DNA from: Thermofilum sp. NZ13
GTDB lineage: Archaea; Thermoproteota; Thermoprotei; Thermofilales; Thermofilaceae
DNA: 64,000 bases
NCBI GenBank assembly: GCA_002855745.1
Contig: NDWX01000001.1
Location: forward strand, 124,001 to 188,000
Reading direction: 5' to 3'
The translations under genes and the position numbers were made by a program. The stretch's first letter is position 1, and each line of letters starts with the position of its first letter. A model generated the notes under the pieces. That model saw nothing but the letters and a program-made list of their open reading frames with translations, was not told the DNA's origin and did not search any database. Of this stretch, positions 9,508 to 24,044 are shown piece by piece.

Positions 9508-9798
9508 TTAACTCATGCAATACTCTGCGATAGACGACGAGGCCGTTCGCGATCCAGAGCAACTCTTCCTAATGCGAGTAGAAAGCCTCGAGAACCCTGC
9601 GCGTCGTCTTGTAGCTGAACTCCACGTTCCTGAGGGACACGCGCTCATCCACACGTACCACGGGTAGGTGTCGCCCAGCTCCGCTAGCCCCTTGATGAGC
9701 CAGTGCTCCACGCCGATCCTCTCCACCCTCCCAGAGGATGTGGTGAGTGGCTTCACTTTCAGCCTAAACACCGAAAGGGAGATAAACCCCCTCAACAA
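9508..9798 (-). pseudogene. Degenerate fragment of a SWIM-zinc-finger-like gene (copy 1)
   Basis: The only recognisable part encodes EHWLIKGLAELGDTYPWYVW near 9657-9706. It is nearly the same as EHWLVKGLAELGDTYPRYNVW in the wreck at 14,090-14,447 on the other strand, and the DNA of the two stretches is also closely similar over about 65 bases. After this segment the frame is lost; a second frame reads VSLRNVEFSYKTTRRVLEAF before a stop. Flanking parts do not match each other obviously. I read it as a dead copy of a gene family present at least twice here. Function is inferred only from copy 2, which keeps a SWIM-like Cys pattern. Confidence 0.55.
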
Positions 9799-9949: not shown

Positions 9950-10474
9950 TTAAGGGAGCCAGTGGGGGCAGAAAAGGAGGAGCACGTACTCCGCTTTCAC
10001 GAGGTCGGGGTGGTTCTCCACCAGCCACCCCGCGCCCATCCTCCCGCCCATCTCCTCGTCGGCTGTCGCCGCGTAGATGAGGCGCCCCTTGAACCTCTTG
10101 GACTCGACGAAGTCCAGGAAGACGCGGAGCATCACGGCGACGCTCAGCTTGTCGTCGAGCGCCCCGCGCCCCCAGATGAATCCGTCCTTCACCAGCCCCG
10201 AGAAAGGGTCGACACTCCACTCCTCGGGGTTGGCGGGTACGACGTCGAGGTGGGAGAGGAGGAGCAGGGATGGGCCCGGCTCATTGGACTCGGCCCACGC
10301 TACAATGCTACCCCTGTTGGGCGCGCTCTCGAGCAGCTTGTACTCGACGCCCGCTCCGCTCAGGGCCTCGGCAATGAGCTTCGCGGCAGGCGTCTCGTTG
10401 CCGGGAGGGTTAGAGGTGTCCACGCGTATGAGCTCCGAGAGCATGTCGGCGACAAATGCTACTTTGGGATCCAC
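9950..10474 (-). pseudogene. M20 family metallopeptidase/deacylase, C-terminal two thirds missing
   Basis: N-terminal part of an M20 enzyme (ArgE/DapE/acetyl-lysine deacetylase group). Metal-site motifs are present: LLLSHLDVVP with the His and Asp, GRGALDDK with the bridging Asp, and TADEEMGG with the catalytic Glu pair. The protein ends at about 174 residues after VKAEYVL, against roughly 400 in the family, so the rest of the catalytic domain and the dimerisation domain are gone. The likely start is the GTG at 10474 (DPKVAFVADMLSEL follows); the open frame upstream of it is not family-like. The break coincides with the GC-rich hairpin block at 9836-9935, which suggests an insertion followed by deletion. 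Confidence 0.75.
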
Positions 10475-10738
10475 GGGTAAGCCTCTCGCCCAAGCGCATA
10501 AGCCTTTCGCTCTTCGAGGCTCGCTGACGCACCCAAGTGTAAAGGGAGGGATCGGGCAGTTCTCGCGTGCAAACCGACCAGTGAACTCCTTCCTCCGCAT
10601 TTGAAGGATAAAGGTGCTCACAAAGGTTTTGCGACGTATAACCTCACAATACAATAAAATAAAAAGCTGGGATACCGGCTTCGCATTTTAGAAGAGGGCT
10701 GATCTGAATCTCGCGCTACGTTTTTATCGGAGGTCTTC

Positions 10739-11575
10739 ATGGCTAGCGTAGGGAGGGTGTTGACGAGCAGCCTCAGCGACCTCAAGAAGGAGTTCCTCAG
10801 GCTTTTGGAGATGGACGAGGAGTTCCGCTACGCTGTAGCAGGCTACCTAGGGTACTCCGAGATCCTTAACGAGCTGAAAGCACTCCGCGAGGAGCAGCGG
10901 AGGATCTGGGAGAGCATCGAAAAGCTGTGGAAGGAGGTCAGGGCTCTCAGAGAGGAGCAGAACAAGCTGTGGGAGGAGATCAAGAACCTTAGAGAAAACC
11001 AGGAGAAGCTCTGGGAAGAGGTCAAGAACATTAGGGAAGAAGCCAAGAGCCTCCGGGAGGAGGTGAGGACTTTAAAAGAAGGCCAGGAAACTCTGAGGGA
11101 GGGGCAGGAAAAGCTTTGGGAGGAGGTGAGGACCTTGAAGGATGGTCAGGAGAGACTGTGGAAGTACGTGAAGGCTGGCTTCGCTGAGCTGCGGGCAACA
11201 CTGGGAGCCACGTTCGAGGACTACGCCAGAGCATTCCTAGAGGTGATGCTGGAGGAGATGGGTTACTCTGGGGCGCGCGTCACAAGGGGGTACCTGCTCC
11301 GCGATAGAGAGGTCGTGGAGGTCGACGTGCTCTGCGAGAACCCCCTTGTGGTAGGCGAGGCGACTTCCAGGATCCAGAGCATCGAGGAGGCTGAGAGAGA
11401 GGCTGAGAAGCTCACGGAGAGGGTCCGCCTCGCCGAGGAGAAGTACGGCAGGAAACCCGTCCTGGCTGTGCTCGCCGTGGGCTCCGCTCCTCCAGAGGTC
11501 CTCAATAGGCTCAGGTTGCTCGCCGAGAAAAACGGCTTCAAGCTGGTCGTAGGCAGACTTTACGAGGAGAGCTGA
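10739..11575 (+). CDS. Coiled-coil protein with C-terminal PD-(D/E)XK-like domain (DUF3782-like), copy 1
   Basis: A 278-residue protein with three parts. Residues 1-45 form a helical module (LKKEFLRLLEMDEEFRYAVAGYLG). Residues 45-145 are a long charged coiled coil of 7-residue units built on EEQ.KLWEE. Residues 150-278 are an alpha/beta domain with VEVDVLCENPLVVGEATS, which resembles the D-x(n)-E-x-K region of restriction-type nucleases but has Thr where Lys is expected. A strong Shine-Dalgarno GGAGGT precedes the ATG at 10739. The N-terminal module closely matches the protein at 54,297-55,118, whose nuclease domain is different. Such proteins are common in hyperthermophilic archaea; their role is not known to me. 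Confidence 0.75.
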   Translation: MASVGRVLTSSLSDLKKEFLRLLEMDEEFRYAVAGYLGYSEILNELKALREEQRRIWESIEKLWKEVRALREEQNKLWEEIKNLRENQEKLWEEVKNIREEAKSLREEVRTLKEGQETLREGQEKLWEEVRTLKDGQERLWKYVKAGFAELRATLGATFEDYARAFLEVMLEEMGYSGARVTRGYLLRDREVVEVDVLCENPLVVGEATSRIQSIEEAEREAEKLTERVRLAEEKYGRKPVLAVLAVGSAPPEVLNRLRLLAEKNGFKLVVGRLYEES

Positions 11576-11786
11576 GCCTGACCCCTGAGCCTTCACCCCT
11601 TAGGTACTTCTGCTCTCGGGGATGCGATTCTTCAAAGCAGGGAGAGCTGTGGAAAAGTTAGCGCCTTCTGCTTAAACATTACCCCGGTGTGTGGTGGTCA
11701 ATGCGCGTGAGGGCTTCTCCGAATTTGCCTGGAGTATGCTGTGAATATCAATTAAAGATAACACTTTATACTTCATTGCTTATTTA
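11576..11786. other. Intergenic stretch with promoter of the pilin-like pseudogene
   Basis: No gene is visible. The 3' end is A+T-rich and contains CTTTATA at about 11,764-11,770, a TATA-like element about 20 bases before the ATG at 11,787. Confidence 0.4.
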
Positions 11787-12330
11787 ATGCTTGTGACCTC
11801 TGAGCATGTATCCGCTATTTTCCTCGTTCTCCTCGTGGTAGCCGGTGCCGTAGCTCTCTGGATCCTTCAGCAGCAAATGCACTCATAGTACACTAAGGCG
11901 GCTCAGGAGCGGCTGCCCTCGAAGATCAAAGTCGATGCAGTTGAGGTGGGTTTAGACGGGACGGTTGTGCTCTATATTAGAACGCTTGACGACTACACGT
12001 CGAAGGTTTAGACCTTCTACCTGGTCGACCCGGTTAGCGACCTAGCCCTCGCGGTCTACAACTACGAGGTCACTCTGAGCCCGGGTAATGTTACCCGAGT
12101 GCTCATACCCTCCTACGTCCTGAAGGGAACACCCCTGCCGGAGAGGAGCTACCTCGTGCTGAAGACAGGGAGTGCCACCTCGCTCACGACGGTTGCCGTT
12201 GTGCCTCGTCAAGTGCTCGAGCAGGCCCTTGCCCGCGAGTTCCCAAAGCTGGCGTACAGGGCTTATGAAAGCTCCGCCAACCTCAACATAAACCACTACG
12301 TGGTGCTGGACCCTGTGAGGGCCGCGCCTG
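11787..12330 (+). pseudogene. Pilin-like secreted protein gene with two in-frame TAG codons, cut by the TnpB element
   Basis: One continuous reading frame runs from the ATG at 11,787 to 12,330 with only two interruptions, both TAG, at 11,886-11,888 and 12,009-12,011. The N-terminus EHVSAIFLVLLVVAGAVALW resembles the hydrophobic helix of archaeal type IV pilins and related surface proteins. The rest reads well as an extracellular beta domain (KIKVDAVEVGLDGTVVLYI, SYLVLKTGSATSLTTVAVV). At 12,330 the frame enters the end of the TnpB element, so the C-terminus is lost. Many neighbouring genes stop at TAG, so general TAG read-through is unlikely, and this is most simply a pseudogene. Confidence 0.65.
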
Positions 12331-12600
12331 GCTCATCCACCCCTTCACCGATCCGGGGCCCCCTCTTCGGGGTTCTCATGGGCTCCGCGCCTTCGGCCCG
12401 CCCCGCCAGCTCAGGTTGTGCGGCGGGGCTTTGCCTCGGCGCCTCTTCGCCTCGTCACACCGCGCGCGGCACCCGGCGTGCGGCCGTGTGGCCGTGCCGG
12501 GAACTGGGGCCGGGGCCCGCTGGCCTGCCTCTAGGGCCCTGGCCTGTCTCTCAGGCCGTGGGTCGGCGCCTTGGGGTGCTGGCTGAGCCACTTGCTCAGC
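12331..12600 (-). ncRNA. Putative omegaRNA (reRNA) and right end of the TnpB element
   Basis: This very GC-rich stretch overlaps the last codons of tnpB and runs downstream of it, the position where IS200/IS605-type elements encode the guide RNA of TnpB. On the minus strand it is rich in self-complementary runs and finishes with ATGAGAACCCC...GGGGTGGATGAG. This resembles the end hairpin typical of such archaeal elements (ATGAAxCCC...GGGGAGGATG). The element end is therefore placed near 12,330. The guide would be read from the interrupted pilin-like gene immediately beyond. Boundaries are approximate. Confidence 0.55.
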
Positions 12601-13931
12601 GCCTCTAGTTGTCTTTCCGCATTGCAGGCTTTTAGGAAGAGCTTTACAGAGTTGAAGGCTGCGGCCCAGTCCCTGCCCCAGGTGAGGCCGCACTTGGGGC
12701 AGCGGTAGCACCTCCTCATCACCTCTACCCCCCACGAGCCGCAGAGGGGGCAACGCTTCCCGCTGATGTTGTTCTCAGGCTGGAACCACCTAGCCCCCTC
12801 GTAGAGCGCTAGGTTCTCAAGCCGCCTCACCACTCTGAGCAAGGTCCTCTGCAACTGTGAGCCCTTCAAGCTCTCGGCCCTTGGCACGTCCGCGACGATG
12901 ACGACGAGGTAGCCCTGGTCCCGTAGCTTCCTCACCAGGCCCCTCACCTCCCTGAGCACGCCTCTAACCCAGCCCTCGTTCACCTTCTTTTCCTTCCTCG
13001 ACGCCTGCCCCGCTACTCTTTCAGACCTCTCCGGCGTCAGGTTCACCTTTGCCCTGAGCCTCTCCGCCAGCCTTAATGTCTCCTCCACCGTGGAGCCCTT
13101 TCCCGCTCTCCGCAACTCGTTGACGTCCCTCCTCTCCCTGAACCTCTGGACGGCTTCACTCCAGCTCTTAACCTCGGAGTAGCTGGTCATAATTGCTGCT
13201 AGTAGCCTCAGCAACGTGGTGTTGGGCGGCTTAAACACTCGCTGAGCCACCAGCTTGGCTTCGCCGTCGAAGGCGAAGGCCATAACGTACAGCCCGTGAG
13301 AGCTGTTCATGTCCACCGCTACGACCGCCAGCTTGCCCTCGCCGTCCCACCACGCCGGCTTCACCTTGCGGTGCGCTACGAGGCGAAGCCTGCCCCTAGC
13401 CGTTAGTTGCAACGTCAGCTTAACGCCGCCGAACCGCTGGACGTCCTCCAGCACAGCCCTGACCAGCGAGGGCTTCAGCCTCACCGCGACGCCAGCGCTC
13501 GGAATGCGTAGCATGCCCTTGGAGGCATCCAGCACCGCAGTAGCATCGCTTTTGCCGTGAAGCCTATCACCGCCGCTGACTACCCTTATGAGTAACGGTA
13601 TTGGAGGTGGCGTGAACCTGCTGCGCCTCTTAGACTTCCCCCTCGCCTCGGCGAGCATCCTGCACCACTCCGCGGCGTACCAGAACAGCCCCTTCGGCAG
13701 CCCAGCCAGCCTCGAGGCCTCCCCGATTAACTCCTCGCTGAACCTCTCCGGCTCCCTCCTGAACGCGTCGCCGTGCTTCCTCTCGAGCTCCTCGCTGGCC
13801 CGCTCAACCGCAGAGGCAAGGCTGAAGTAGAGGCTCCGAAGCCTCATTCTCAGCTCCCTGCTCGCCTTTACCTCCCAGACCCTGTAAGCCTCGATGAACC
13901 TCTCGCCGCTTTCCCTGCCCTCCCAGCCCAC
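12531..13931 (-). CDS. tnpB: TnpB (OrfB) RNA-guided nuclease-like protein with altered RuvC-II motif
   Basis: TnpB-family protein of 466 residues, GTG start at 13,931. RuvC-I is VVAVDMNSSHG with Asp207. The C4 zinc ribbon CPLC...CPKC lies at about residues 390-413. RuvC-III is GRDWAAAFN with Asp421. In the RuvC-II strand LVVIVADVP the place of the usual catalytic Glu is taken by Ala347 or Asp348 depending on alignment, so cleavage activity is uncertain. Intact TnpB cuts DNA next to a target motif under guidance of the RNA made from its own right end. The family DVP-x-AESLKGSQLQRTL block is shared with thermoproteal OrfB proteins as I recall them, so the change may be lineage-wide and not a local loss. 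Confidence 0.85.
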   Translation of the reverse strand: MGWEGRESGERFIEAYRVWEVKASRELRMRLRSLYFSLASAVERASEELERKHGDAFRREPERFSEELIGEASRLAGLPKGLFWYAAEWCRMLAEARGKSKRRSRFTPPPIPLLIRVVSGGDRLHGKSDATAVLDASKGMLRIPSAGVAVRLKPSLVRAVLEDVQRFGGVKLTLQLTARGRLRLVAHRKVKPAWWDGEGKLAVVAVDMNSSHGLYVMAFAFDGEAKLVAQRVFKPPNTTLLRLLAAIMTSYSEVKSWSEAVQRFRERRDVNELRRAGKGSTVEETLRLAERLRAKVNLTPERSERVAGQASRKEKKVNEGWVRGVLREVRGLVRKLRDQGYLVVIVADVPRAESLKGSQLQRTLLRVVRRLENLALYEGARWFQPENNISGKRCPLCGSWGVEVMRRCYRCPKCGLTWGRDWAAAFNSVKLFLKACNAERQLEALSKWLSQHPKAPTHGLRDRPGP

Positions 13932-14089
13932 GCTCCCACCTCCAGGGAGCCTGGCACGCTGCGCCCCTAGCCCTTCCTACGCCTGAGCCCCCGCACATAG
14001 TTGCGCTACGCGGCCTTATATCCCTGCGCCGAAAATAAACGCCGAAACTGAAAACACAGCAAACAGGGGGCAACCGCCGGCTCAGAGCG

Positions 14090-14450
14090 GCTAAGCTGGG
14101 TGATTACCTGAGGCTGATCGACTAGGCTCCCTGAGGAGCGCGGGGACCTGCTCGACGCGCTAAGCGAGTTACAAGAATCTTTCCCCGACAAGCCGGCGGA
14201 GTGGCTCTACCGCGCCGTGTACAGGCTTCTAGCCGGGAAAGTGGAGGGGGTGGGAGCGAGCACTGGCTCGTCAAGGGGCTGGCGGAGCTGGGGGACACCT
14301 ACCCCCGGTACAACGTCTGGGTACACGAGGGCAAGTACCGCTGCGACTACATCTCCAGGATACGGCTACGTCCGCAAGGCGAGGATGTGCAACCCCACAG
14401 CTACGGTGATGCTGTACCGGAGACAGCTCCGGCTCCGCGCCGGATGAGCT
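14090..14450 (+). pseudogene. Degenerate SWIM-zinc-finger-like gene (copy 2)
   Basis: Three frames must be joined. The first reads DLLDALSELQESFPDKPAEW and LYRAVYRLLAGKVEG. After a shift near 14,245 it reads EHWLVKGLAELGDTYPRYNVW and VHEGKYRCDY. After another shift near 14,355 it reads GYVRKARMCNPTATVMLYRR. Joined, the pattern YRCDx...MCNxxAxVMLYRR resembles a SWIM zinc finger (CxCx(n)CxH) in which the second Cys has become Tyr and the His has become Pro. A TAG at about 14,127 interrupts the N-terminal part. The middle segment is closely similar to copy 1 at 9,508-9,798. Clearly a dead gene; the parent function would be nucleic-acid or protein binding. Confidence 0.6.
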
Positions 14451-14777
14451 TGAGCGCCCGCTCGCCACAGGCCACTTCCTCAGGGCTGTAGCTGAGCAGC
14501 GCGAGGAGGCCGCAGGCACGCTCGGTGAGGTAGACGTACCTCACACTGCCGACCACCGCCTCCCTGACGAAGCCCGCTGAGCGCAGCCTCCCCAAGGCGC
14601 TGGCTATGTGCCTGGTGTTGCGGGTGCCGAACGCTCTGCTGAGGGGCCTGGGTTGGCTCAGGTGCCAGAGCGTCCTTGCGAGGCCGGTCAGCTCGAGCCA
14701 CTGGCCACGCAGTCCCAGACCTCGGCGCCGACCTCGACCATCACCGCTAAATGCGAGAGGGGGGTTGTAGGCGTTCA
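14420..14777 (-). pseudogene. Winged-helix-like protein, probably degraded
   Basis: A stretch of about 95 residues reads as a DNA-binding winged helix: LARTLWHLSQPRPLSRAFG, TRNTRHIASALGRLRSAGFV, REAVVGSVRYVYLTERACG, then a helical end. It resembles small archaeal wHTH regulators. Upstream of about 14,700 the frame is open but low-complexity (Arg/Gly/Pro rich) and not family-like; a GTG at 14,777 is the best available start. It converges on the SWIM-like wreck. I treat it as a remnant or a poorly defined gene. Confidence 0.4.
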
Positions 14778-14825
14778 CATAAGCTGTGCTCGTCGAGGCT
14801 ATGTCAATGCATAGTGCTCGAGTGA

Positions 14826-14939
14826 ATGGGGATCGTCTGCGTGCGCGTGACGCCGGCCGAAAAGGAGAGGCTGAGGGGGGAGGCAGAGGAGGGGGGCCTG
14901 AACCCCTCGGAGTACCTCCCCCTCGAGATCCTAGGCTAA
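14826..14939 (+). CDS. Tiny ribbon-helix-helix-like protein (37 residues), possibly a remnant
   Basis: ATG at 14,826, TAA at 14,937-14,939. The product reads VRVTPAEKERLRGEAEEGG and then LNPSEYLPLEILG. This is the strand-helix-turn-helix pattern of CopG/MobC-type ribbon-helix-helix proteins (R-V-T-x-x-E-K-x-x-L...G-L-x-x-S-E-Y). It would be a DNA-binding dimer such as an antitoxin or plasmid regulator. No toxin gene follows, so it may be what is left of a mobile module. Confidence 0.4.
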   Translation: MGIVCVRVTPAEKERLRGEAEEGGLNPSEYLPLEILG

Positions 14940-15399
14940 AAAACTGCCTTTTTCTCTCTCCCTCTCTTTCCCCCACCTTACCTGACCCCACACATGCTGT
15001 GACCGTATCGAGCTTGAGTCCCAAGGGCGCTACCCGCGCACCCTCTCACAACCCCTTCTAACCCTTGGTGGCAAGGGAAAAGAGCGAGTCGAGCACGGGA
15101 AGAAACTAGGGAAAAGCTAAAAAATAGCATTGCTACACCCTGCAGAGATTCCTGTGTCTACTGCAAGGATTTCAACGCTTATTGGCAGGTCGTGTCCGGT
15201 GGCTACTACCGTGAGTTCTACGTCACGAGCACGGCCGTCAACCCCTAGGCCCCTCGCAGATTCCAAGCCAGCAACGCCTGGAAGCTAGCCGTATCCCGCA
15301 ATACAGGAGGAGATATTGCTTCCAATCAGGAGTTCGCACCCGCTCTCCTTTCTCTCCCCGAGGCCAATTCCCGTTTTCAAAGTGCTTCTGAAATTCGTT
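14940..15399. other. Non-coding or decayed stretch
   Basis: No gene can be supported. A short frame near 15,130-15,248 encodes CRDSCVYCKDFNAYWQVV and ends at a TAG, which looks like the end of a lost Cys-containing protein. The stretch after it is featureless up to the VapB operator. Confidence 0.3.
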
Positions 15400-15434
15400 G
15401 TAGTAAGATTTAAGTAAGAATTCTTTCTTACTAC
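15400..15434 (+). promoter_or_regulatory. VapB promoter and nested palindromic operator
   Basis: Two nested inverted repeats lie immediately before the antitoxin gene: GTAGTAAG (15,400-15,407) pairs with CTTACTAC (15,427-15,434), and AGTAAGAA (15,413-15,420) pairs with TTCTTACT (15,425-15,432) with a 4-base spacer. The A+T-rich GATTTAAG between them is a plausible TATA box. AbrB-type antitoxins usually bind such palindromes and repress their own operon. Confidence 0.6.
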
Positions 15435-15437
15435 ACC

Positions 15438-15707
15438 GTGGTGAGTATGTTGAAGACTGTGGTTTCCAGCAAAGGCCAAGTCGTGATCCCGAAGCGCGTG
15501 AGGGAGGAGCTGGGGCTTACTCCCGGCACAGTTCTCAGAGTGCGGGTCGAAGGGAAAAAGGTTATCTTGGAGCCGGTCGAGGGGCCACCTAAGGAGGTGT
15601 TCGTCAGGGCTGGGCCGAGCGTCACCGAGCGAATACTCAGGGAGGCTAAGAGCTCTGGCGATAAGGCGCAGAGGCTACTGGAGGACCTAGGTGTTCCTGT
15701 TGGCTAG
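15438..15707 (+). CDS. vapB: AbrB/SpoVT family antitoxin (VapB)
   Basis: An 89-residue protein (GTG 15,438; the internal ATG at 15,447 is equally possible) with the swapped-hairpin AbrB domain in the first 45 residues: TVVSSKGQVVIPKRVREEL then LTPGTVLRVRVEGKKVILEP. The C-terminal half is the flexible toxin-neutralising tail. It overlaps the PIN toxin gene by 17 bases, the usual vapBC arrangement. It should bind and inhibit the toxin and repress the operon through the palindrome just upstream. Confidence 0.9.
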   Translation: MVSMLKTVVSSKGQVVIPKRVREELGLTPGTVLRVRVEGKKVILEPVEGPPKEVFVRAGPSVTERILREAKSSGDKAQRLLEDLGVPVG

Positions 15708-16155
15708 CGTGGGCTTAGACACAAGCGTGATAATAGAGTACATCGACGAGGAGGGCGAGTACCACGAGCAGGCCGAGGCCGTGTTCTCAGCTATCATGTC
15801 GGGGAAGCTGGAGGCGCTGATACCCCACCCCATCTTAGCAGAGACGTTCTACGTGGCCGCGAGGCTATACCGCGAGCTCGGGGCTGGAGAGCCGGAGGCC
15901 ACCGCTTCGAAACTGGTGGAGTGGCTCTACAGGCTCCCGCAGGTGAAGGTGATCGGCACGAGCTTAGAGCTGGCCCTGGAGGCGGGGAAGGTCAAGCTAC
16001 GCTACAAGCTCGCCTTGACGGACTGCTACGTCATCGCGGCGTGCAAGATACACGGCTGCACCGCGCTCTTCAAGAAGCCCGAGGCAGAGATGCGGGAGAG
16101 CATCCAGCGGCTGAAGAAGGACTACATGGTAGTCTTCCTGGAGGAGTACAGGTAG
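15691..16155 (+). CDS. vapC: PIN domain ribonuclease toxin (VapC)
   Basis: A 154-residue PIN domain protein. Acidic residues are in their family places: Asp in VGLDTSVIIEYI near residue 10, Glu in PILAETFYVAA near 52, and Asp in LALTDCYVIAA near 110. PIN toxins cut RNA, often tRNA, with Mg2+. The GTG at 15,691 lies inside the antitoxin gene (17-base overlap), so translation is probably coupled. The C-terminus FKKPEAEM and KDYMVVFL is typical of the family. Confidence 0.9.
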   Translation: MFLLASVGLDTSVIIEYIDEEGEYHEQAEAVFSAIMSGKLEALIPHPILAETFYVAARLYRELGAGEPEATASKLVEWLYRLPQVKVIGTSLELALEAGKVKLRYKLALTDCYVIAACKIHGCTALFKKPEAEMRESIQRLKKDYMVVFLEEYR

Positions 16156-16411
16156 AGGCCTCGACAGACAGAATTAAGCCGCCCTCGGGACCACAAAGCA
16201 AAAATCGTTAAAAACGGGTAATCAATCATGTTCCAAGGATGAGGTAATTGGCTACCTGCCGACCGCGTGAGGCCTCCCGGCCTTGACCGACCGCTGGCGG
16301 GTGCCGTTCATTCAACCACTGACCTTAAAGTAAAGGATCGTGTTAAAGAGCCGTGGATTTTGCAAGCCAGTTGACCTAGTCGGTTCGCATCGCCGAACTT
16401 TTCCGCCTGAA
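16156..16411. other. Intergenic stretch between vapC and sufD
   Basis: Convergent gap of 256 bases with no supported gene. No tRNA-like fold was found, although GGTTCGCATC at about 16,381 superficially recalls a T-arm. Confidence 0.4.
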
Positions 16412-17500
16412 CTAGTTGTTTCCCAGCTCCTCCACCAGTAAGTCAACAATTCTCTTCAGCTCCAGCTTTCCGAGGATGTCCTCGACAAGGCTGTGGTAGG
16501 CGCCCCTTACGAGGGCCTCGACAGCCTCGTCATAGCTGAACCCCCTTGACCTAAGGTAGAAGATCTGGTCCTCGTCGAGAGGTGCTTGTGCCACCGAATG
16601 GCTGGCCTCCTCAGGCTCGTCGGACTCTATCTCGAGGACGGGGGAGGCGTATACCTTCGCTTTGCTCGTGAGCGGCACCAGCCTCGAGATGACCCGCAGC
16701 CTGCTACCTCTGGCACCGCGGCGAGACCTCGCGTACCCCTTGTGGGCGATGTACCCGTCCCCGGCGAAGCCGACGGCTCTGATATCGAGCTCTGCCTCAG
16801 GGGCGCGGGCCTCTGCGTCCGTTACCAGCGCGAGCTTCGAGCCCTTGTTGGAGGCGAGGAGAGCTCTCGTGCTTAGCCGGGAGTTCGCACCTGCGAGGTC
16901 TGCGTGCGCTTCTAGGTGGAGCATCCGCGAGCGCGCCGCGATTATGAGGTTTTCCATGGACGCGTTCTCCCCGAGGGATGCGTCCAGGAAGATGGCTGAG
17001 GGCGAGCCCCGTGAGTCGAAGACCACGTAGCTCGCCTTGAGGCTAGCCCCCGGCGCCACGTTGATGTTCAGGGTGAGGGTCACCAGCCCTCTAGAGGATT
17101 CTGGCGAGAGTAGCAGGACCCTGAGCCCCGAGTGGCCCCGAGCCTGGACCTCGAGGTGCGCGGACAGCGCACCCTCGTTCGGCTTCGGTACGAGGACGGT
17201 TACGCTGGCGTCTGTGAGGAGGAGCCTGTGGAGGGAGTTGAGGTTGTGCTCGTGGAAGCTCAGGATCCTTAGGGAGCTTGCCCTCGGGAAGGTGGGTCTC
17301 TCCGCGACGGGGGTGGGCTTCAGTATGGTCGTGGGCTCTGCGCCTAGAGCGTTCAGCAGGCTGTCGTCCCAGCTCAGCTCTAGCGGCGGGGAGGGGTTCT
17401 CGATGTACGGATCGAAAGCCTTCCAGTCAGTGTAGTAGCGCACCGTTGGGGAGTCGGCTACCGGCTGGTAGGGCACCTTGAGTACTTCCTCGAGCTTCAC
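16412..17500 (-). CDS. sufD: Fe-S cluster assembly protein SufD-like
   Basis: A 362-residue SufB/SufD family protein made largely of right-handed beta-helix turns, with the family C-terminal segment LDEDQIFYLRSRGFSYDEAVEALVRGA. SufD pairs with SufB to build the scaffold on which Fe-S clusters are assembled, with SufC supplying ATP-driven conformational change. It starts with GTG in a 4-base GTGA overlap with the sufB stop, so the operon order is sufC-sufB-sufD. It is shorter and more diverged than SufB, which is usual in archaea. Confidence 0.88.
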   Translation of the reverse strand: MKLEEVLKVPYQPVADSPTVRYYTDWKAFDPYIENPSPPLELSWDDSLLNALGAEPTTILKPTPVAERPTFPRASSLRILSFHEHNLNSLHRLLLTDASVTVLVPKPNEGALSAHLEVQARGHSGLRVLLLSPESSRGLVTLTLNINVAPGASLKASYVVFDSRGSPSAIFLDASLGENASMENLIIAARSRMLHLEAHADLAGANSRLSTRALLASNKGSKLALVTDAEARAPEAELDIRAVGFAGDGYIAHKGYARSRRGARGSRLRVISRLVPLTSKAKVYASPVLEIESDEPEEASHSVAQAPLDEDQIFYLRSRGFSYDEAVEALVRGAYHSLVEDILGKLELKRIVDLLVEELGNN

Positions 17501-18909
17501 CCGTAGCCACCCAGCTCCTCGAACTCCAGCTCAAGGACCCGCCGGAAGACCACCTGGTACTCGAAGGGTAGCCTCCCCAGTAGGTCCCCGACGTAGCCCA
17601 GGACCAGCATCCTCCTAGCCTCGCCCTCGCTCAAGCCCCTCGACTGGGCGTAGAACAGTGCGTCCTCGCTCAGCCTGCCCGTTGTCGCCTCGTGAACGAC
17701 GGTTACGCTCTCCTCCTCGACCTCGTTTTTAGGGTACGTGTATGCCTTCGACGACTCGTCGAGTATTAGGCTATCGCACTTCACGGAGGCCTTGGAGCCA
17801 GACGCCCCCCTCGCCACCCTCACGAGCCCCCTGTAGACGGCCACCCCGCCCTGCGCGCTTATGCTCTTGCTTACAACCTCACTGCTCGTGTTGGGCGCCA
17901 GGTGGAAGACCTTGGCTCCACTATCCTTCCAGGTCGGGCCCTTCGCGAGAGTGATGTTCGCTATGCTCGCCCTGGCCCCCTCGCCCTTGAGTATAGCAGA
18001 GGGGTAAACGTAGCTGACCTTGCTACCCAGGCTCCCCTCAGCCCACTCGATTGTGGCGTTTTCCTCGAGGATCGCCCTCTTGTTGTTGAAGTTGATCAGG
18101 TTCTTGCTCCAGTTCTGGACAGTGGTGAACTTAACGTGCGAGCCCCTGTGCGCGTATATCTCCACCATGCCGTCGTGGAAGCTGTACTTCTTGAAAAGGG
18201 GCGCCGCGCAACCCTCGATGAAGTGCACGAAGCTACCCTCGTCAGCGACTATCAGGGTGTGCTCGAACTGGCCCTCGAGCTCGCTGGCTACGAAGAAGAA
18301 GGCCTCGATGGGCGCCTCTATCCTGACCCGAGGGGGAACGTAGAGGAACACTCCCCCGCTCCACAGGGCCCCGTGCAGTGCGGCGAACTTGTGGTCGCTG
18401 GGCGGGAAAACGCGCATGAAGTACCTCTTTACGAGGTCAGGGTACTTCACGAGAGCCTCGCTCATGTCCATGAGGACCACACCGGACCGCTCGAGGTATT
18501 TTTTGAAAGCCAGGTACACGGTCTCGCTCTCGAACTGGGCGGCGAGGCCCGAGAGGACCTTCGCCTCGATCTCCGGCAAGCCCAGCCTCTCGTAGACACG
18601 TCTGATCTCCTCGGGCAACTCCTCCCAACTCCTCGCCCTCTCTACGTCAGGCTGGACGTAGTGGGCGAGCTCCTCCAAGTCCAGCTCCTCGACCCCCACG
18701 AGCCAGTTGGGCATAGGTAGCTTTTCGAAGAGCTCGAGGCTCCTGAGCCTGAGCCTCAGCATCCACTCCGGCTCCTTCTTCGACCTCGAGAGCTCCTCCA
18801 CCAGGCTTCTCGAGATCCTTCCCCTGAGCTCCAGCCGCGGCTTGTGCGTTATCGAGCTGACAGTGTAGTCCAGCTCAGGTAGCCCCTCGAGGACGGCCGG
18901 CCTGCTCAC
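17497..18909 (-). CDS. sufB: Fe-S cluster scaffold protein SufB
   Basis: A 470-residue SufB. Typical features are the N-terminal helical part with YVQPDVERARSWEELPEEI, the segment GALWSGGVFLYVPP, HTLIVADEGSFVHFIEGCAAP with a conserved Cys, and the C-terminal DALFYAQSRGLSEGEARRML. Together with SufC and SufD it assembles Fe-S clusters in the cytoplasm; the many FeS proteins nearby (for example the Mo-reductase operon) depend on such a system. GTG start in a 4-base overlap with sufC. Confidence 0.94.
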   Translation of the reverse strand: MSRPAVLEGLPELDYTVSSITHKPRLELRGRISRSLVEELSRSKKEPEWMLRLRLRSLELFEKLPMPNWLVGVEELDLEELAHYVQPDVERARSWEELPEEIRRVYERLGLPEIEAKVLSGLAAQFESETVYLAFKKYLERSGVVLMDMSEALVKYPDLVKRYFMRVFPPSDHKFAALHGALWSGGVFLYVPPRVRIEAPIEAFFFVASELEGQFEHTLIVADEGSFVHFIEGCAAPLFKKYSFHDGMVEIYAHRGSHVKFTTVQNWSKNLINFNNKRAILEENATIEWAEGSLGSKVSYVYPSAILKGEGARASIANITLAKGPTWKDSGAKVFHLAPNTSSEVVSKSISAQGGVAVYRGLVRVARGASGSKASVKCDSLILDESSKAYTYPKNEVEEESVTVVHEATTGRLSEDALFYAQSRGLSEGEARRMLVLGYVGDLLGRLPFEYQVVFRRVLELEFEELGGYG

Positions 18910-19622
18910 TCCGCGACCACCGGGAAGCCCTCAGCTTCCACCCTCCTCGCAAGCTCGAGTCCACCCTGCGCCACAATCCTCCCAGACACCATGATGAGCA
19001 CTTTGTCCGGCTTCACGTACTCGATCGTCGTGGGATTATGGCTGACGAGCAGGACTGCTTTACCGCTGGAGGCCAGCTGCCTAACCTTCTCAGCCAGCAT
19101 CCTCAAACCGTCTATGTCGAGGCCCGAGTCCGGCTCGTCCAGCATCACGACCTTGGGGTTGAAGACCAGCGCCTGCGCCAGCTCGAACCTCTTCCTCTCG
19201 CCCCCCGAGAAACCCACGTGCACGCTACGGTACGCGTACTCTCTCGGAAGACCCACCTCCTCCAGAGAGCTTTCCACCTTATCCTTCACGCTGACACCCA
19301 GCTTACCCGCAGCCTCTACGAGAAAATTGAACACCTTAACCCCCGGCAGCTCTGGGGGTGACTGGAAGGCGAGGAAGAGACCCCTCCTGGCCCTCTCCTC
19401 CGGCCTCAAAGCCAGCAGATCCTCCCCGTCAAGCAGAGCGCGGCCCTCCGTAACCGTGTACCTGGGGTGGCCCATGAGTGCGAGGAGTAGCGTGCTCTTC
19501 CCGCTGCCGTTGGGCCCCATGATCACTGTAACCACTCCCTTCGGCGCCGTGAAGCTGGCTCCGCGCACTATCCGCTTCCCCTCAACGGCAACCGTTAGGT
19601 TTTCAACAACGAGCCCTTCCAT
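18906..19622 (-). CDS. sufC: Fe-S assembly ATPase SufC
   Basis: ABC-type ATPase of 238 residues without membrane partners. Walker A is GPNGSGKST, the signature is FSGGERKRFELAQ, Walker B is VVMLDEPDSGLD and the switch His is in LLVSHNP. The distinctive SufC text FLAFQSPPELPGVKVFNFL is present. First gene of sufCBD; the ATG at 19,622 follows a TATA-like TTTATATCC about 30 bases upstream on the minus strand. Confidence 0.96.
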   Translation of the reverse strand: MEGLVVENLTVAVEGKRIVRGASFTAPKGVVTVIMGPNGSGKSTLLLALMGHPRYTVTEGRALLDGEDLLALRPEERARRGLFLAFQSPPELPGVKVFNFLVEAAGKLGVSVKDKVESSLEEVGLPREYAYRSVHVGFSGGERKRFELAQALVFNPKVVMLDEPDSGLDIDGLRMLAEKVRQLASSGKAVLLVSHNPTTIEYVKPDKVLIMVSGRIVAQGGLELARRVEAEGFPVVAE

Positions 19623-19669
19623 GCGTATCCCACCGTCATAAACACCTGACCGGATATAAAGGTTACCGG

Positions 19670-20881
19670 CTAGACGAGCACCCTGAACTCCTCGTTGACG
19701 AAGACCTTGTGGCTCTCGAGCTCCGCGAGCACACCTCTCCTAACCACACCGGGCAGAGCCTCAGGAGGGTATACCCCTGCGAGCCTCCTGCCCCTTAGGA
19801 CCCTCAGGACCGCTAGAGCGACGAGCGCCGTTGGGTAGGTGATGTAGGTAGCGCCGGGCATGAGCTCGTTAACCTTCCTCTGGCTAGGGAAGACGACGCT
19901 CCTGGATGAGACGGCCCTAGCCCCCCCGACCTCTCCCTCGACGACCACCTTCAGGGCGAAGAAAGCGTCCTCCAGGTCCCCCTCCTCGACTGCGCGGATA
20001 GCCTCAAGCGGCCCGCTGGGCTCTCTGAGAACCTGGTAAAGAATGCTCCTCAGGGGAACCAACCGCCCCCTGACCAGTATCTTCCTGTCCTCCAAGACGC
20101 CTAGGCGGTAGAGCGCCCTCAGCGTCTCGATGTCGCTCCCTCCGGCGTAGTAGGAGAAGTCCCTTATCCTAAGGAAAGCCGGGATAGTGTAGCTCTCGTC
20201 GTTCGAGACGGAGTAGCAGCGAATCGACCCGATGGGCTCCGGGAACTCGCAGAGCGCTGAATCCGCAAACGGCTCGGACATGAAGTACCTCCCGTTCCTG
20301 TACACCAGGACGGGTGTAGCCACGTTCAGCATCTCCTCCTTGGACCACGAGATTATGAAGGACGAGCCCCGCTGGTCCTCGAGAGACATGACCTTGACCG
20401 AGTGCGCCCTGTCGAAGTCCTCGTAGGCCTCCCTAGCCAGAATGTTCGAGAGCCCCGGAGAGGCCCCCGCGTTTATCACAGCCGTCACGCCCTCGGCCAA
20501 GAACCTTTTCGACAAGGAGAGCTGCTCAGCCCTCCTCCTCTTCCCCCCGTAGCACGCCAGGTCCACGTAGCCGACCCCAGCCCTCAGAGCGGCCTCCATA
20601 ACCAGGGGGTTCAGGAGAACTTCTCTCTCCCCCACCCTGACGAAGGTCGGGAGGGAGTTCACGACGAAGTCGAAGCCCTTAAGCTTAGCAGCAAGCTCGT
20701 CAACCCGGACAGCGTCCACCTCCTCAACGGGCACGCCACCACCCTCGTCGAGGCTCAGGAAGCTCCTAGCCTTCTCGACGTCCCTGTCGAGGCAGACTAC
20801 GCTCTCAGCCACCTTAGTCCTCAAAGCCAGCCTAGCCACCACCGATCCTACCGCACCGCATCCAAGCACAGCAAGCCTCAT
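19670..20881 (-). CDS. Saccharopine dehydrogenase-like oxidoreductase
   Basis: A 403-residue NAD(P)-binding protein of the saccharopine dehydrogenase family (LYS9-like). The N-terminal Rossmann motif is LAVLGCGAVGSVVARL. The middle part keeps ADLACYGG-like text (VGYVDLACYGGKRRRAEQL) and NAGASPGLSNILA, both typical of the family. Substrate is not determined; archaeal members act on lysine-related or carboxynorspermidine-like compounds. It stands alone, 47 bases from the suf operon. Confidence 0.82.
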   Translation of the reverse strand: MRLAVLGCGAVGSVVARLALRTKVAESVVCLDRDVEKARSFLSLDEGGGVPVEEVDAVRVDELAAKLKGFDFVVNSLPTFVRVGEREVLLNPLVMEAALRAGVGYVDLACYGGKRRRAEQLSLSKRFLAEGVTAVINAGASPGLSNILAREAYEDFDRAHSVKVMSLEDQRGSSFIISWSKEEMLNVATPVLVYRNGRYFMSEPFADSALCEFPEPIGSIRCYSVSNDESYTIPAFLRIRDFSYYAGGSDIETLRALYRLGVLEDRKILVRGRLVPLRSILYQVLREPSGPLEAIRAVEEGDLEDAFFALKVVVEGEVGGARAVSSRSVVFPSQRKVNELMPGATYITYPTALVALAVLRVLRGRRLAGVYPPEALPGVVRRGVLAELESHKVFVNEEFRVLV

Positions 20882-21015
20882 AGCCGCCTAAGAGACATTC
20901 ACGCTAGCCTTTTAACAATGTTTCCCCTCCCTCATTACTAGTAAGGTTCTATAGCATTGACATGCTGTGCCGAATACAAGGAAAAGCTTTAATAACGAAC
21001 ACTAGTAACTATCTC

Positions 21016-21222
21016 ATGTTTAGGAGTGTATACGACGTCTCATCTAACTCTCTTAAGATAGTAACCCTCGAGGGAAAAGAGCCCGTTAAGACGCTGAAAG
21101 CTGGAGAAGACATTCTCATTCGCGTAGATGAGCACGGGAACGTGCTGGAGATAGAGTTCAGAGACCCCAAGAAAATCATATCAACTCTTCTAAAGAGCTA
21201 CCTTGAAGCCCCTACAGTCTAA
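21016..21222 (+). CDS. Small DUF2283-like protein
   Basis: A 68-residue beta-rich protein (MFRSVYDVSSNSLKIVTLEG, then DILIRVDEHGNVLEIEF) resembling the DUF2283 family, whose function is unknown. The frame is open from 20,962, but TTTAATAA near 20,988 lies about 25 bases before the ATG at 21,016, which supports a leaderless transcript starting there. Confidence 0.6.
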   Translation: MFRSVYDVSSNSLKIVTLEGKEPVKTLKAGEDILIRVDEHGNVLEIEFRDPKKIISTLLKSYLEAPTV

Positions 21223-21311
21223 CCAGGAAGCTAGTACTTTATAGGCGTCGTTTTCTCCCCCTGCGAAAGAGATTAGAGTAAGGTCCTTTTCACAGTAAGC
21301 CGGGATTGTGC

Positions 21312-21959
21312 TTGAGGATCGTAGTCGTCGGTGGAGGCTACATCGGGTTTTTCCTCGCTAAGTACTTCGCCCGTAGAGGCGACAGGGTGGTCGTGGTCGA
21401 GAAAAGGAAGCCCCTGTGCGACAAGATAGCGAAGAAGATCGACGCGACTGTATTCTGCGGGGACGCGACGCGAGTGGAGGTATTAGAGGACGCTGAAGTC
21501 GATAAAGCAGACGTGCTGTTAGCCGTGACTGGCCGCGACAGCGTCAACATCCGAGTTGCAGAGCTGGCTAAGAAGAGGTTTGGAGTCCCACTGGTGGTGG
21601 TTCGCGTAGACGAGGCTGAGAACACGCGGAAAGCGATAGAGGCTGGGGCCGATAAGGTGGTGTGCATGGACGACTTCGCCGAGTACTTTGCCAGGGTTGT
21701 GACCGCTAAAGGTTACAGGTACCTCTCGAGCTTCAATGGTGAAGCCATCCTCGAGGTCGACGTCCCGCCGGACTCTCCAGTAATCGGGCAGGACGCGCGG
21801 GAGATTGAGAGCAGGGGCGTTCGCCTGCTCCTCGCGGTCCAGGACGGAAGACCCGTGATCCCATCAAGCGGATACGTGGTCAAAGCCGACGACAAGTTGA
21901 TAGTTTTCGGCAGGAAAGAGGATCTGGAGGAGTTTCTGGACTTCGCGTTCAGCGGGTGA
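21312..21959 (+). CDS. TrkA-like NAD-binding K+ transport regulator
   Basis: A 215-residue protein with an RCK/TrkA-N Rossmann domain (IVVVGGGYIGFFLAKYFARR, then the acidic VVVVEKRK and CGDATRVEVLEDA) and a TrkA-C domain from about residue 135 (LEVDVPPDSPVIGQD). Such proteins bind NAD(H) or ATP and gate potassium channels or transporters. The start is a TTG at 21,312 or 21,306. It overlaps the downstream MscS-type channel gene by 4 bases, so the two are co-translated and may act together in ion or turgor control. Confidence 0.88.
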   Translation: MRIVVVGGGYIGFFLAKYFARRGDRVVVVEKRKPLCDKIAKKIDATVFCGDATRVEVLEDAEVDKADVLLAVTGRDSVNIRVAELAKKRFGVPLVVVRVDEAENTRKAIEAGADKVVCMDDFAEYFARVVTAKGYRYLSSFNGEAILEVDVPPDSPVIGQDAREIESRGVRLLLAVQDGRPVIPSSGYVVKADDKLIVFGRKEDLEEFLDFAFSG

Positions 21960-22693
21960 TGCTGGTGGACGCTTTGCCTGAGAGTTTGATCTTGTTCCTG
22001 GCCTCGCTCGTAGGTACCGTTATCGCCGGAAAGCTGTTCTCATGGGCTGTGAGGAGAACGCTCGGTAGGGTGAACAAGGTTCTAGGGGATGCTCTAGCCA
22101 GGTTTGGGAGCTGGGGTATATACCTCACCGGCTTCCTCTTCTCGCTGGAGCACCTGAACCTGAGGCTCGAGGTTCTCCTGATCCTCTTTGGGGCCCTAGC
22201 GGCGATGCTCCTCCTCGGCCTCAAGGACGTTTTGCCCAACGTCGTCGCCCGACACATGCTCGAGATATACAGGCCCTTTAAAGTCGGGGACTGGATCGAG
22301 GTGGACGGGAACGTTGGGAGGGTCGTGGACATCGACGACCTCTACACGGTAATCCTGACGGTTTACCACGAGAGGGTTTACATACCGAACACAGCCCTGT
22401 TGAAGAAGCAGGTTGTGAACATAACGAGGAGCGAGGGGGTAGATGTGGTGACGTCCTTCGAGGTGCCCGTGACCGGTGACATCGGCAAGCTGATCTCCCG
22501 CCTCGAGAAAACACTCAAGAAAGAGCTTGAGGAGGAGGTGATGGAGGGAGAGCCCGAGGTCTGGCTTTCAGGGATCTCTGGCGGCAAGGCGCGGCTAACT
22601 GTCAGAACCCGCATTGGAAACCCTAATAGGGTTCCGGAGGTGAGGTCGAAGATCCTACTCTCTGTGGCAAAGGTTATCTCGGAGCCGGGCTAG
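21956..22693 (+). CDS. Small-conductance mechanosensitive channel (MscS family)
   Basis: A 245-residue membrane channel with about three transmembrane helices in the first 95 residues. The pore-lining and beta-domain part reads LLLGLKDVLPNVVARHMLEI followed by RPFKVGDWIEVDGNVGRV, typical of MscS. It relieves osmotic pressure by opening under membrane tension. Starts with GTG overlapping the TrkA-like stop; its 3' end overlaps the convergent APC permease gene by 20 bases. Confidence 0.92.
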   Translation: MMLVDALPESLILFLASLVGTVIAGKLFSWAVRRTLGRVNKVLGDALARFGSWGIYLTGFLFSLEHLNLRLEVLLILFGALAAMLLLGLKDVLPNVVARHMLEIYRPFKVGDWIEVDGNVGRVVDIDDLYTVILTVYHERVYIPNTALLKKQVVNITRSEGVDVVTSFEVPVTGDIGKLISRLEKTLKKELEEEVMEGEPEVWLSGISGGKARLTVRTRIGNPNRVPEVRSKILLSVAKVISEPG

Positions 22694-24044
22694 CCCTGCG
22701 CCTCCTCTGGTAAAGGTAGTAGAAGATCAGCCCCGCCGCGAGCCACGCGAAGCCCACGTTTCTCCCCTCCTCGTGGGACCACACGACCATTAACCACATC
22801 ACCGTCGTCGATAACGCTCCCAGAAGCGCCGATACTGGGAACTCCACCCTCCTGCCCCTCACCCTGACGGGGATGTTGCCCGGCACCTTGAAGGGCCTGT
22901 ACCTGTACGGATCCTTAAGCCTGAGCACAATCACCGACAGGTTGACTATGGTGTAGGATATCAGTGCGCCGAAGTTGTAGAGGTCGGCGGCGAGCCCGAG
23001 GTGGCCGGCCATCGCAAGAGCGAGCTGCACGACGGCGAATATGAGCACAGCGCGGTAGGGCGTGAGGAACCTAGGGTGAAGCTCGCTGAGCCACTCCGGC
23101 AGCATTCCCTCCTTCCCCATAGCGTAGGCCATCCTTGAAACCCCCACGATTCCTGTGTTCGTGGCGACGTAGCACACTGTCATCCCGATGAACGAGACCC
23201 ATAGGCTCAGCACCTCGCCGTAGGGGAGGTGCTCCGCGACCACAGCCGCTGGATCCTTGTAAGACGCCGCGAGCCTCTCCCACCCTACAACGCCGATTGC
23301 CAGGGTTGAGAAGGCGATCGCGAAGCCAATGACCACAGCGCTGACGAACTTTACGGCCAGGGGTATGGTTCTGCCTGCTCTTCTCGTCTCCTCGGCTGTC
23401 TGGGATATCACCTCTATCCCTAGGTAGGAGGCCATCGCGAGCGTCGAGGCGTATATGAAGTCGTGCAGTGTTGGGTTAACCCCGATCATCACCTGGTCGA
23501 AGAAGGGCTTGAAGCTGGTGAGGTAGCCGAGGCTCATTATCACCAGCAGGCCTGATATGTCGGCCAGGACTAGCGCAGAGCTGAACCTCGCCGACTCCCT
23601 GATTCCCAGAATGTTCAGCGCCACGAGGATGGCTACGAGGATGGAAGCCGTCATGCCGAAGTAGGGGTCGCGGTGAAGGAGCGGGAAGAGGTGCCCCAAG
23701 TACCCCGTTGTCGCGAGGGCGAAGATCGAGCCTGTCACAATGTAGTCGAGGAGGAGGCTCCAGCCGCTTATAAAAGCAGCCAGTCTCCCGAAGGCCCTTT
23801 CAGCGAACTTCATCCCTCCACCCGCCTCGGGGATCGCGGAGCTCAGCTCGGCGTAGCTTAAGGCGGTGAGAAGGTAGGAGATCGAAGCCACAGCGAACGC
23901 TAGGGGGGTTGCTGGACTAGCGTAGGACGCCACCAAGCCGAGGGTCATGTAGATGCCGGCTCCCACGTCGGCGTAGCCGAAGCTGAAGACGCCGAGAAGG
24001 CCAATCCTCCTTTTAAGCCTCTGCTCTCCCTCCGAACCAGGCAC
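22674..24044 (-). CDS. APC family amino acid permease
   Basis: A 456-residue polytopic membrane protein with about 12 hydrophobic helices. The start GVFSFGYADVGAGIYMTLG matches the TM1 G-x-G region of APC transporters. LSYAELSSAIPEAGGGMKFAERAFG is the conserved TM2-TM3 text, and FIYASTLAMASYLGIEVISQTAEETRRAGRTIP is the TM6 region. It should exchange or import amino acids or amines; the substrate cannot be told. Confidence 0.92.
   Translation of the reverse strand: MPGSEGEQRLKRRIGLLGVFSFGYADVGAGIYMTLGLVASYASPATPLAFAVASISYLLTALSYAELSSAIPEAGGGMKFAERAFGRLAAFISGWSLLLDYIVTGSIFALATTGYLGHLFPLLHRDPYFGMTASILVAILVALNILGIRESARFSSALVLADISGLLVIMSLGYLTSFKPFFDQVMIGVNPTLHDFIYASTLAMASYLGIEVISQTAEETRRAGRTIPLAVKFVSAVVIGFAIAFSTLAIGVVGWERLAASYKDPAAVVAEHLPYGEVLSLWVSFIGMTVCYVATNTGIVGVSRMAYAMGKEGMLPEWLSELHPRFLTPYRAVLIFAVVQLALAMAGHLGLAADLYNFGALISYTIVNLSVIVLRLKDPYRYRPFKVPGNIPVRVRGRRVEFPVSALLGALSTTVMWLMVVWSHEEGRNVGFAWLAAGLIFYYLYQRRRRASPAPR

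What the first reader, a model, noticed from the sequence alone, without database searches (positions are those of the whole stretch)
12331..12600. Putative omegaRNA and right end lying inside a pilin-like gene
The GC-rich region after tnpB ends with ATGAGAACCCC...GGGGTGGATGAG, like the end hairpins of IS605-type archaeal elements. It abuts a pilin-like reading frame, so the guide would be read from the disrupted host gene. No tnpA is present.
Basis: partly seen in the sequence, partly recalled or inferred. Interest (0 to 1): 0.5.

Follow-up and report, generated by a model that had tools for sequence, protein, structure and literature searches.

The report
Guide RNA end of TnpB element
A mobile element in an archaeon has landed inside a pilin-like gene and ends in what looks like a guide RNA for its own TnpB protein; the same guide-RNA unit occurs about 39 times in this genome, half of them without the protein, and the protein's active site is unusual.

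Summary
Window 12321-12512 (minus) is a conserved, structured RNA unit just downstream of tnpB (12531-13931): 39 covariance-model matches in the own genome, none in 11 relatives, with a compensated 5' hairpin. A same-species genome (G192) carries the uninterrupted pilin-like gene; here the element (12321 to ~15137) replaces 482 bp of it. The guide would be antisense pilin sequence. No Y1 TnpA was found in the genome. New points: (1) 20 of 39 RNA copies have no tnpB beside them, including four ~250-nt mini-elements; (2) the TnpB clade (23 of 23 aligned) lacks the canonical RuvC-II glutamate, yet copies show dN/dS 0.21-0.38; (3) the right junction is exact in 8 of 8 same-species comparisons, while the left is sloppy (six with both flanks: 482, 433, 62, ~14 bp lost; 0; 12 bp duplicated). 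Best reading: a TnpB/omegaRNA transposon family with a non-standard active site and guide-only satellites. No RNA data; cleavage untested.

The parts
12321..15137 (-). whole element as inserted; right end at 12320/12321, left end at 15135-15137 (TAGCAATG...TTTTCCCTAGTTTCTTCCCG)
   Evidence: G192 homology stops at window 12321 and resumes at 15138; left-end motif shared by other full-length copies such as L012, L028, L029, L037 and G192 loci
12321..12512 (-). putative omegaRNA scaffold: 5' hairpin P1, long closing stem P2 made with the right-end terminus, further hairpins
   Evidence: alignment A3 of 27 copies, folding, pair counts, model R1 match at G000:C1:136321-136504 = window 12321-12504
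12300..12320 (-). predicted guide (flanking DNA, antisense to the pilin-like gene)
   Evidence: unique flank after the fixed end; matches only its own locus in the own genome
12531..13931 (-). tnpB, 466 aa; RuvC-I D207, RuvC-III D421 and four zinc cysteines kept; canonical RuvC-II Glu replaced by A347
   Evidence: PF07282 E 6.4e-8; alignments A1, A4; AlphaFold model pLDDT 88; VIA-align Z 14.3 to ISDra2 TnpB 8h1j
14041..14054 (-). TTTTCAGTTTCGGC, matching the left boundary of the ~250-nt mini-elements (TTTCACTTTCAG)
   Evidence: the equation of the two motifs is by eye
14133..14790 (.). degenerate cargo: a winged-helix-like gene (minus) and a SWIM-like zinc-finger gene (plus); names are recalled, Pfam gave no match
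11790..12320 (+). 5' part of the interrupted pilin-like gene, two in-frame stops
15138..15190 (+). the pilin-like gene resumes (same frame region as G192 ...PCGDSCVYCKDFNAYWQV); the full extent of this 3' part was not mapped

Best explanation
The element is one of a multi-copy archaeal TnpB/omegaRNA transposon family. Transcription through tnpB, or from the short leader of tnpB-less copies, gives an RNA whose conserved fold ends at the transposon right end and whose 3' tail is read from the host DNA; here the tail is antisense to the interrupted pilin-like gene (position shown; transcription and processing inferred). TnpB would bind this RNA and recognise the empty pilin allele, as in G192, acting for retention of the element; the 20 tnpB-less copies would be served in trans by TnpBs from other copies (inferred). 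Because the clade has lost the canonical RuvC-II glutamate, TnpB either cuts with a reorganised active site (D348 and/or E353 are candidates) or only binds. Who mobilises the element is unknown: no Y1 or clear serine transposase was found in the genome.
For: Fixed right end with unique flanks; exact right junctions against eight same-species sites; uninterrupted gene in G192; compensated hairpin overall and, in a separate re-deal of 3' letters, in both tnpB-less (113 paired cells, 0 of 2000 shuffles) and tnpB-linked copies (133, 0 of 2000); 39 model matches in the own genome, 0 in 11 relatives; RNA unit directly 3' of all 13 intact tnpB copies; TnpB fold and profile matches; dN/dS 0.21-0.38 in 91 pairs; each of 33 flanking guides matches only its own place above chance level; a T-rich motif WTYH directly 5' of the guide in 6 of 8 empty sites (sites read; counted, background 2.9%; motif chosen after seeing the sites).
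Against: No RNA or cleavage data. Canonical catalytic Glu absent in 23 of 23 TnpBs. The WTYH motif fails at this very locus (CCCC) and at L010. P1 pairs in 80.7% of cells in tnpB-less copies against 89.3% in tnpB-linked ones, so some tnpB-less copies decay. The single-sequence fold is only mildly more stable than shuffles (z -1.30).
Confidence: 0.8

Rival explanations
1. The conserved 3' unit is only a DNA transposon end (hairpins read by a transposase) and not a functional guide RNA.
For: Fixed terminus; tnpB-less copies common, 20 of 39, as for MITE-like satellites; canonical RuvC-II Glu missing.
Against: Compensated hairpin ~160-190 nt from the end and constant position behind each intact tnpB fit an RNA; but DNA hairpins can covary too, so this is not excluded by sequence alone.
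Confidence: 0.12
2. A TldR-like nuclease-dead repressor system in which guides silence host genes.
For: RuvC-II Glu absent clade-wide under purifying selection; several guides run into start regions of neighbouring genes (seen by eye).
Against: All 33 guides match only their own flank in the own genome (weaker matches at chance level, and short seed targets cannot be seen); elements keep both transposon ends and vary in position between two strains.
Confidence: 0.12
3. RNA-mediated (target-primed) insertion: constant 3' end, variable 5' end, target duplication or deletion.
For: Right end exact in 8 of 8; left ends differ, with 12-bp duplication and microhomology at L010 and 14-482 bp losses at four other sites.
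Confidence: 0.06

Closest known systems
ISDra2 TnpB with reRNA (IS200/IS605), PMC8612924 (passages read)
   Same: tnpB followed by an RNA made from the right end with ~16 nt of flanking DNA as guide; same fold (8h1j Z 14.3, 8exa Z 14.0)
   Different: No Y1 TnpA in the genome; canonical RuvC-II Glu absent; left junctions often with host DNA loss; many tnpB-less copies; larger element with cargo
Fanzor / pro-Fanzor TnpBs with alternative RuvC-II Glu (Ealt), PMC10711439 (passages read)
   Same: RuvC-II Glu not in the canonical place
   Different: Ealt is defined six residues before the zinc CxxC; here that place is N387, with E/D one residue earlier only in the own-genome family, and the DPG motif is DxN
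TldR nuclease-dead TnpB repressors, PMC13418256 (passages read)
   Same: TnpB-like protein with altered RuvC and linked guide RNA
   Different: Transposon ends kept, many copies, guides match only the insertion flank
Non-autonomous IS200/IS605 derivatives (PATE-type; term from recall, PMC7290912 and PMC10544981 seen only as search listings)
   Same: Short copies with the ends but no genes
   Different: Here the short copies keep the whole compensated RNA scaffold
TnpBs with rearranged or lost catalytic sites in the 2023 PNAS census (recalled; not held)
   Same: Rearranged RuvC sites are known there
   Different: Whether this clade was included could not be checked

Membership tests
TnpB (OMEGA nuclease) | TnpB/Cas12f-like fold with C-terminal zinc finger domain | tested here: met
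   PF07282 above cut-off; model pLDDT 88.1; ISDra2 TnpB 8h1j Z 14.3, rmsd 6.3, 329 aligned
TnpB (OMEGA nuclease) | canonical D-E-D catalytic triad | tested here: not met
   D207 and D421 invariant, Glu at position 347 absent in 23 of 23; the profile alignment puts it opposite the E of VEDL in 9yyg
TnpB (OMEGA nuclease) | guide RNA from the transposon right end with flanking DNA as guide | tested here: inconclusive
   anatomy and covariation fit; RNA not observed
IS200/IS605 | Y1 (HUH) TnpA transposase | tested here: not met
   PF01797: 0 matches in the own genome, 98.94% complete; TnpA could have been lost or act from another replicon
IS200/IS605 | insertion exactly 3' of a short motif without duplication or loss | tested here: inconclusive
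   six G000-only insertions with both flanks in G192: one clean (L013, after TTTA), one 12-bp duplication, four with host DNA missing; later deletion cannot be excluded
IS607 | serine recombinase TnpA | tested here: not met
   PF00239: best E 0.057, below cut-off
Fanzor/pro-Fanzor | DPG at RuvC-I and Glu six residues before the zinc CxxC | tested here: not met
   DxN motif and no Glu at that place in the alignment; definition
TldR | nuclease-dead, guide aimed at a gene away from the element | tested here: inconclusive
   catalytic Glu missing, but 33 of 33 guides match only their own flank

The most novel reading that the evidence does not exclude
A dispersed RNA-guided network: one archaeal genome keeps a pool of ~13 diverged TnpBs with a third arrangement of the RuvC-II site (neither canonical nor Fanzor-type) that serve ~39 guide-RNA units in trans, half of them protein-free mini-elements, and that spread without Y1 or serine transposase with one exact RNA-guided end and one sloppy end.
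Probability: 0.2. Interest if true: 0.75.

Novelty: new variant of a known kind. Interest (0 to 1): 0.55.

Why it matters
If true, it gives a natural case where guide-RNA-only transposons outnumber the nuclease genes, so guide sharing in trans can be tested, and a TnpB clade whose catalytic site differs from both known arrangements, so one can ask whether loss of the canonical glutamate gives a binder or a differently built nuclease. The two same-species genomes give ready-made filled and empty sites with exact junctions.

Tried and rejected
The search for related loci in genome contigs with A1 found no relative. Rfam at gathering scores: no match in the window. Relatives of the pilin-like gene by protein search in eight other genomes: none; the answer came from G192 instead. 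Left-end search by aligning tnpB upstream regions gave two unrelated upstream types, and I first took 14789 and then 14054 as the left end; both are internal, the G192 comparison puts it at ~15137. I first read the long terminal branches of the tnpB tree (84% of tree length) as immobile, individually kept copies; this was dropped when G192 showed at least six insertions to be absent there. Target-primed retroposition was considered and is unlikely (see rivals). Pyrrolysine-type read-through of the TAGs was considered and dropped because tnpB itself ends in TAG. VIA-align rows are a second look only. Four of the 39 RNA matches are weak (E 1.4e-7 to 1.9e-4); without them 16 of 35 lack tnpB. G000 loci compared with G192: six G000-only with both flanks (window, L009, L010, L012, L013, L024), two with the right flank only (L021, L036), one with flanks in different places (L029, second copy), five shared (L026, L030, L031, L029 first copy, L037), two not found at the predicted place (L017, L034); the rest were not compared. 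For L012 BLAST stops 23 bp apart, ~14 bp by eye. L013 has 64 nt of non-host DNA before TAGCAATG. The search scored only the first five candidates a genome, so G192 copies are under-counted.

Full report
Observation. The minus strand of 12321-12530 follows tnpB (12531-13931, PF07282; TnpB fold). A BLAST search of the own genome with 12301-12560 gave 42 places. Right ends from fetched loci (33 sequences) share a terminus GCCAGGCGCGGYY and then diverge completely, so the end is at 12320/12321, eleven bases past the hairpin.

RNA. 27 copies align over ~190 nt. The 5' hairpin P1 changes sequence while keeping pairs: 91.6% of cells paired over the named structure, 30 cells changed on both sides, 0 of 500 shuffles as high, 6 to 19 cells when slid (the shuffles ignore relatedness, and the measures 'pairs with a change on both sides' and 'further pair types' did not exceed shuffles: 159 and 378 of 500 as high). 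The terminus pairs with GCCGCGCGCGG upstream (P2), which hardly varies and so is not tested by covariation. A covariance model finds 39 copies in the own genome and none in 11 other genomes of the family. 13 lie just behind an intact tnpB, five behind damaged or remnant tnpB, one behind a second tnpB family, and 20 have none (my count from its rows). Four of the latter (L019, L027a, L034, L040) are ~250-nt units that begin TTTCACTTTCAG in unrelated DNA, a motif that resembles the region upstream of tnpB in the window (14041-14054, by eye).

Empty sites. G192, marked 'same species', is uninterrupted at the window's locus: window 9981-12321 and 15138-23410 are colinear with it at 93 to 95% identity, and G192 has 482 bp between them that the window lacks. 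There the pilin-like gene is one open frame from the hydrophobic N terminus through ...HYVVLDPVRGDFRLHDEP... to ...CVYCKDFNAYWQVV.... In the window the gene stops matching at DPVR, the element intervenes, and it resumes at PCRDSCVYCKDFNAYW. The frame also has two stops upstream of the element. Seven further loci give right junctions in G192: L009, L010, L024, L036, L012, L013, L021; with the window, 8 of 8 resume at the predicted base within one or two bases. More distant genomes agree. On the left side the six with both flanks show 482 (window), 433 (L009), 62 (L024) and about 14 bp (L012) of host DNA missing, none missing at L013, and a 12-bp duplication at L010, whose element is cut short inside the cargo at a microhomology. 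Full-length copies share a left end TAGCAATG...TTTTCCCTAGTTTCTTCCCG in both genomes. Five other insertions are shared by the two genomes.

Targeting motif. The four bases 5' of the guide in the eight same-species empty sites are TTCT, ACAC, TTTA, TTCC, ATCA, TTTC, TTTC and CCCC; 6 of 8 fit WTYH against 2.9% in the window. The motif was chosen after looking, and the window's own site does not fit.

TnpB. 23 sequences (13 own, one of a second own family, nine from G002, G004 and G013) keep RuvC-I D207, RuvC-III D421 and the zinc cysteines, but none has Glu at 347; D348 is invariant and E353 is in 22 of 23. Fanzor-type Ealt sits six residues before CxxC; here that residue is N387, and an E or D one residue earlier occurs in the own family only. 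Among 14 own copies (one with a stop), 91 pairs give dN/dS 0.21-0.38 and dS of at least 0.52. So the proteins are kept under selection, and no recent duplicates exist in the genome although at least six insertions are absent from G192; movement without copying, loss of donors, or influx from other strains would explain this. A search of 300 genomes of the phylum at E 1e-20 hit 10.

Mobility. No Y1 transposase and no serine recombinase over its cut-off were found.

Function. Guides (32 nt of each of 33 flanks) match only their own places in the own genome; the next matches have E of 0.27 and above. This fits a retention role on the empty allele and gives no support for distant regulated genes, though short seed matches would be missed. 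The host effect here is loss of the pilin-like gene, already carrying stops.

Literature. I read passages of PMC8612924, PMC10711439 and PMC13418256; other titles are search listings. Searches did not show a description of this element, but the library is partial, the organism's name is unknown to me ('Thermofilum' was a guess), and the PNAS census of TnpBs was not held.

Noticed in passing
G000:C14, C19, C1:317734, C2:82454, C12, C29:2029, C10, C22, C28:119439, C13:123619: A second TnpB family of about ten places, 34-41% identical to the window's in the C-terminal part; the one read (L039) has the same DxPxxESL motif and a weak RNA-model match nearby.
   Followed up: partly
L040 right flank against L098 and L099: The first ~42 nt after the right end are inverted relative to two other species, as if the guide was taken from the other strand.
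   Followed up: no
L036 and the second copy in L029: Left and right flanks map to different places in G192, so copies sit at rearrangement breakpoints.
   Followed up: partly
L021 right flank: The element lies just upstream of what looks like a tRNA gene (by eye).
   Followed up: no
window 9508-9798 and 14201-14491: Two related fragments of a SWIM-like small protein family (name recalled) repeated around the genome.
   Followed up: partly
window 10739-11575: A 278-aa protein with long coiled coil next to the pilin-like gene; only weak coiled-coil Pfam matches.
   Followed up: no
L029 1-2600 against L142; L037 against L134: Two shared insertions have damaged tnpB here but open frames in G192, so individual copies decay.
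   Followed up: partly
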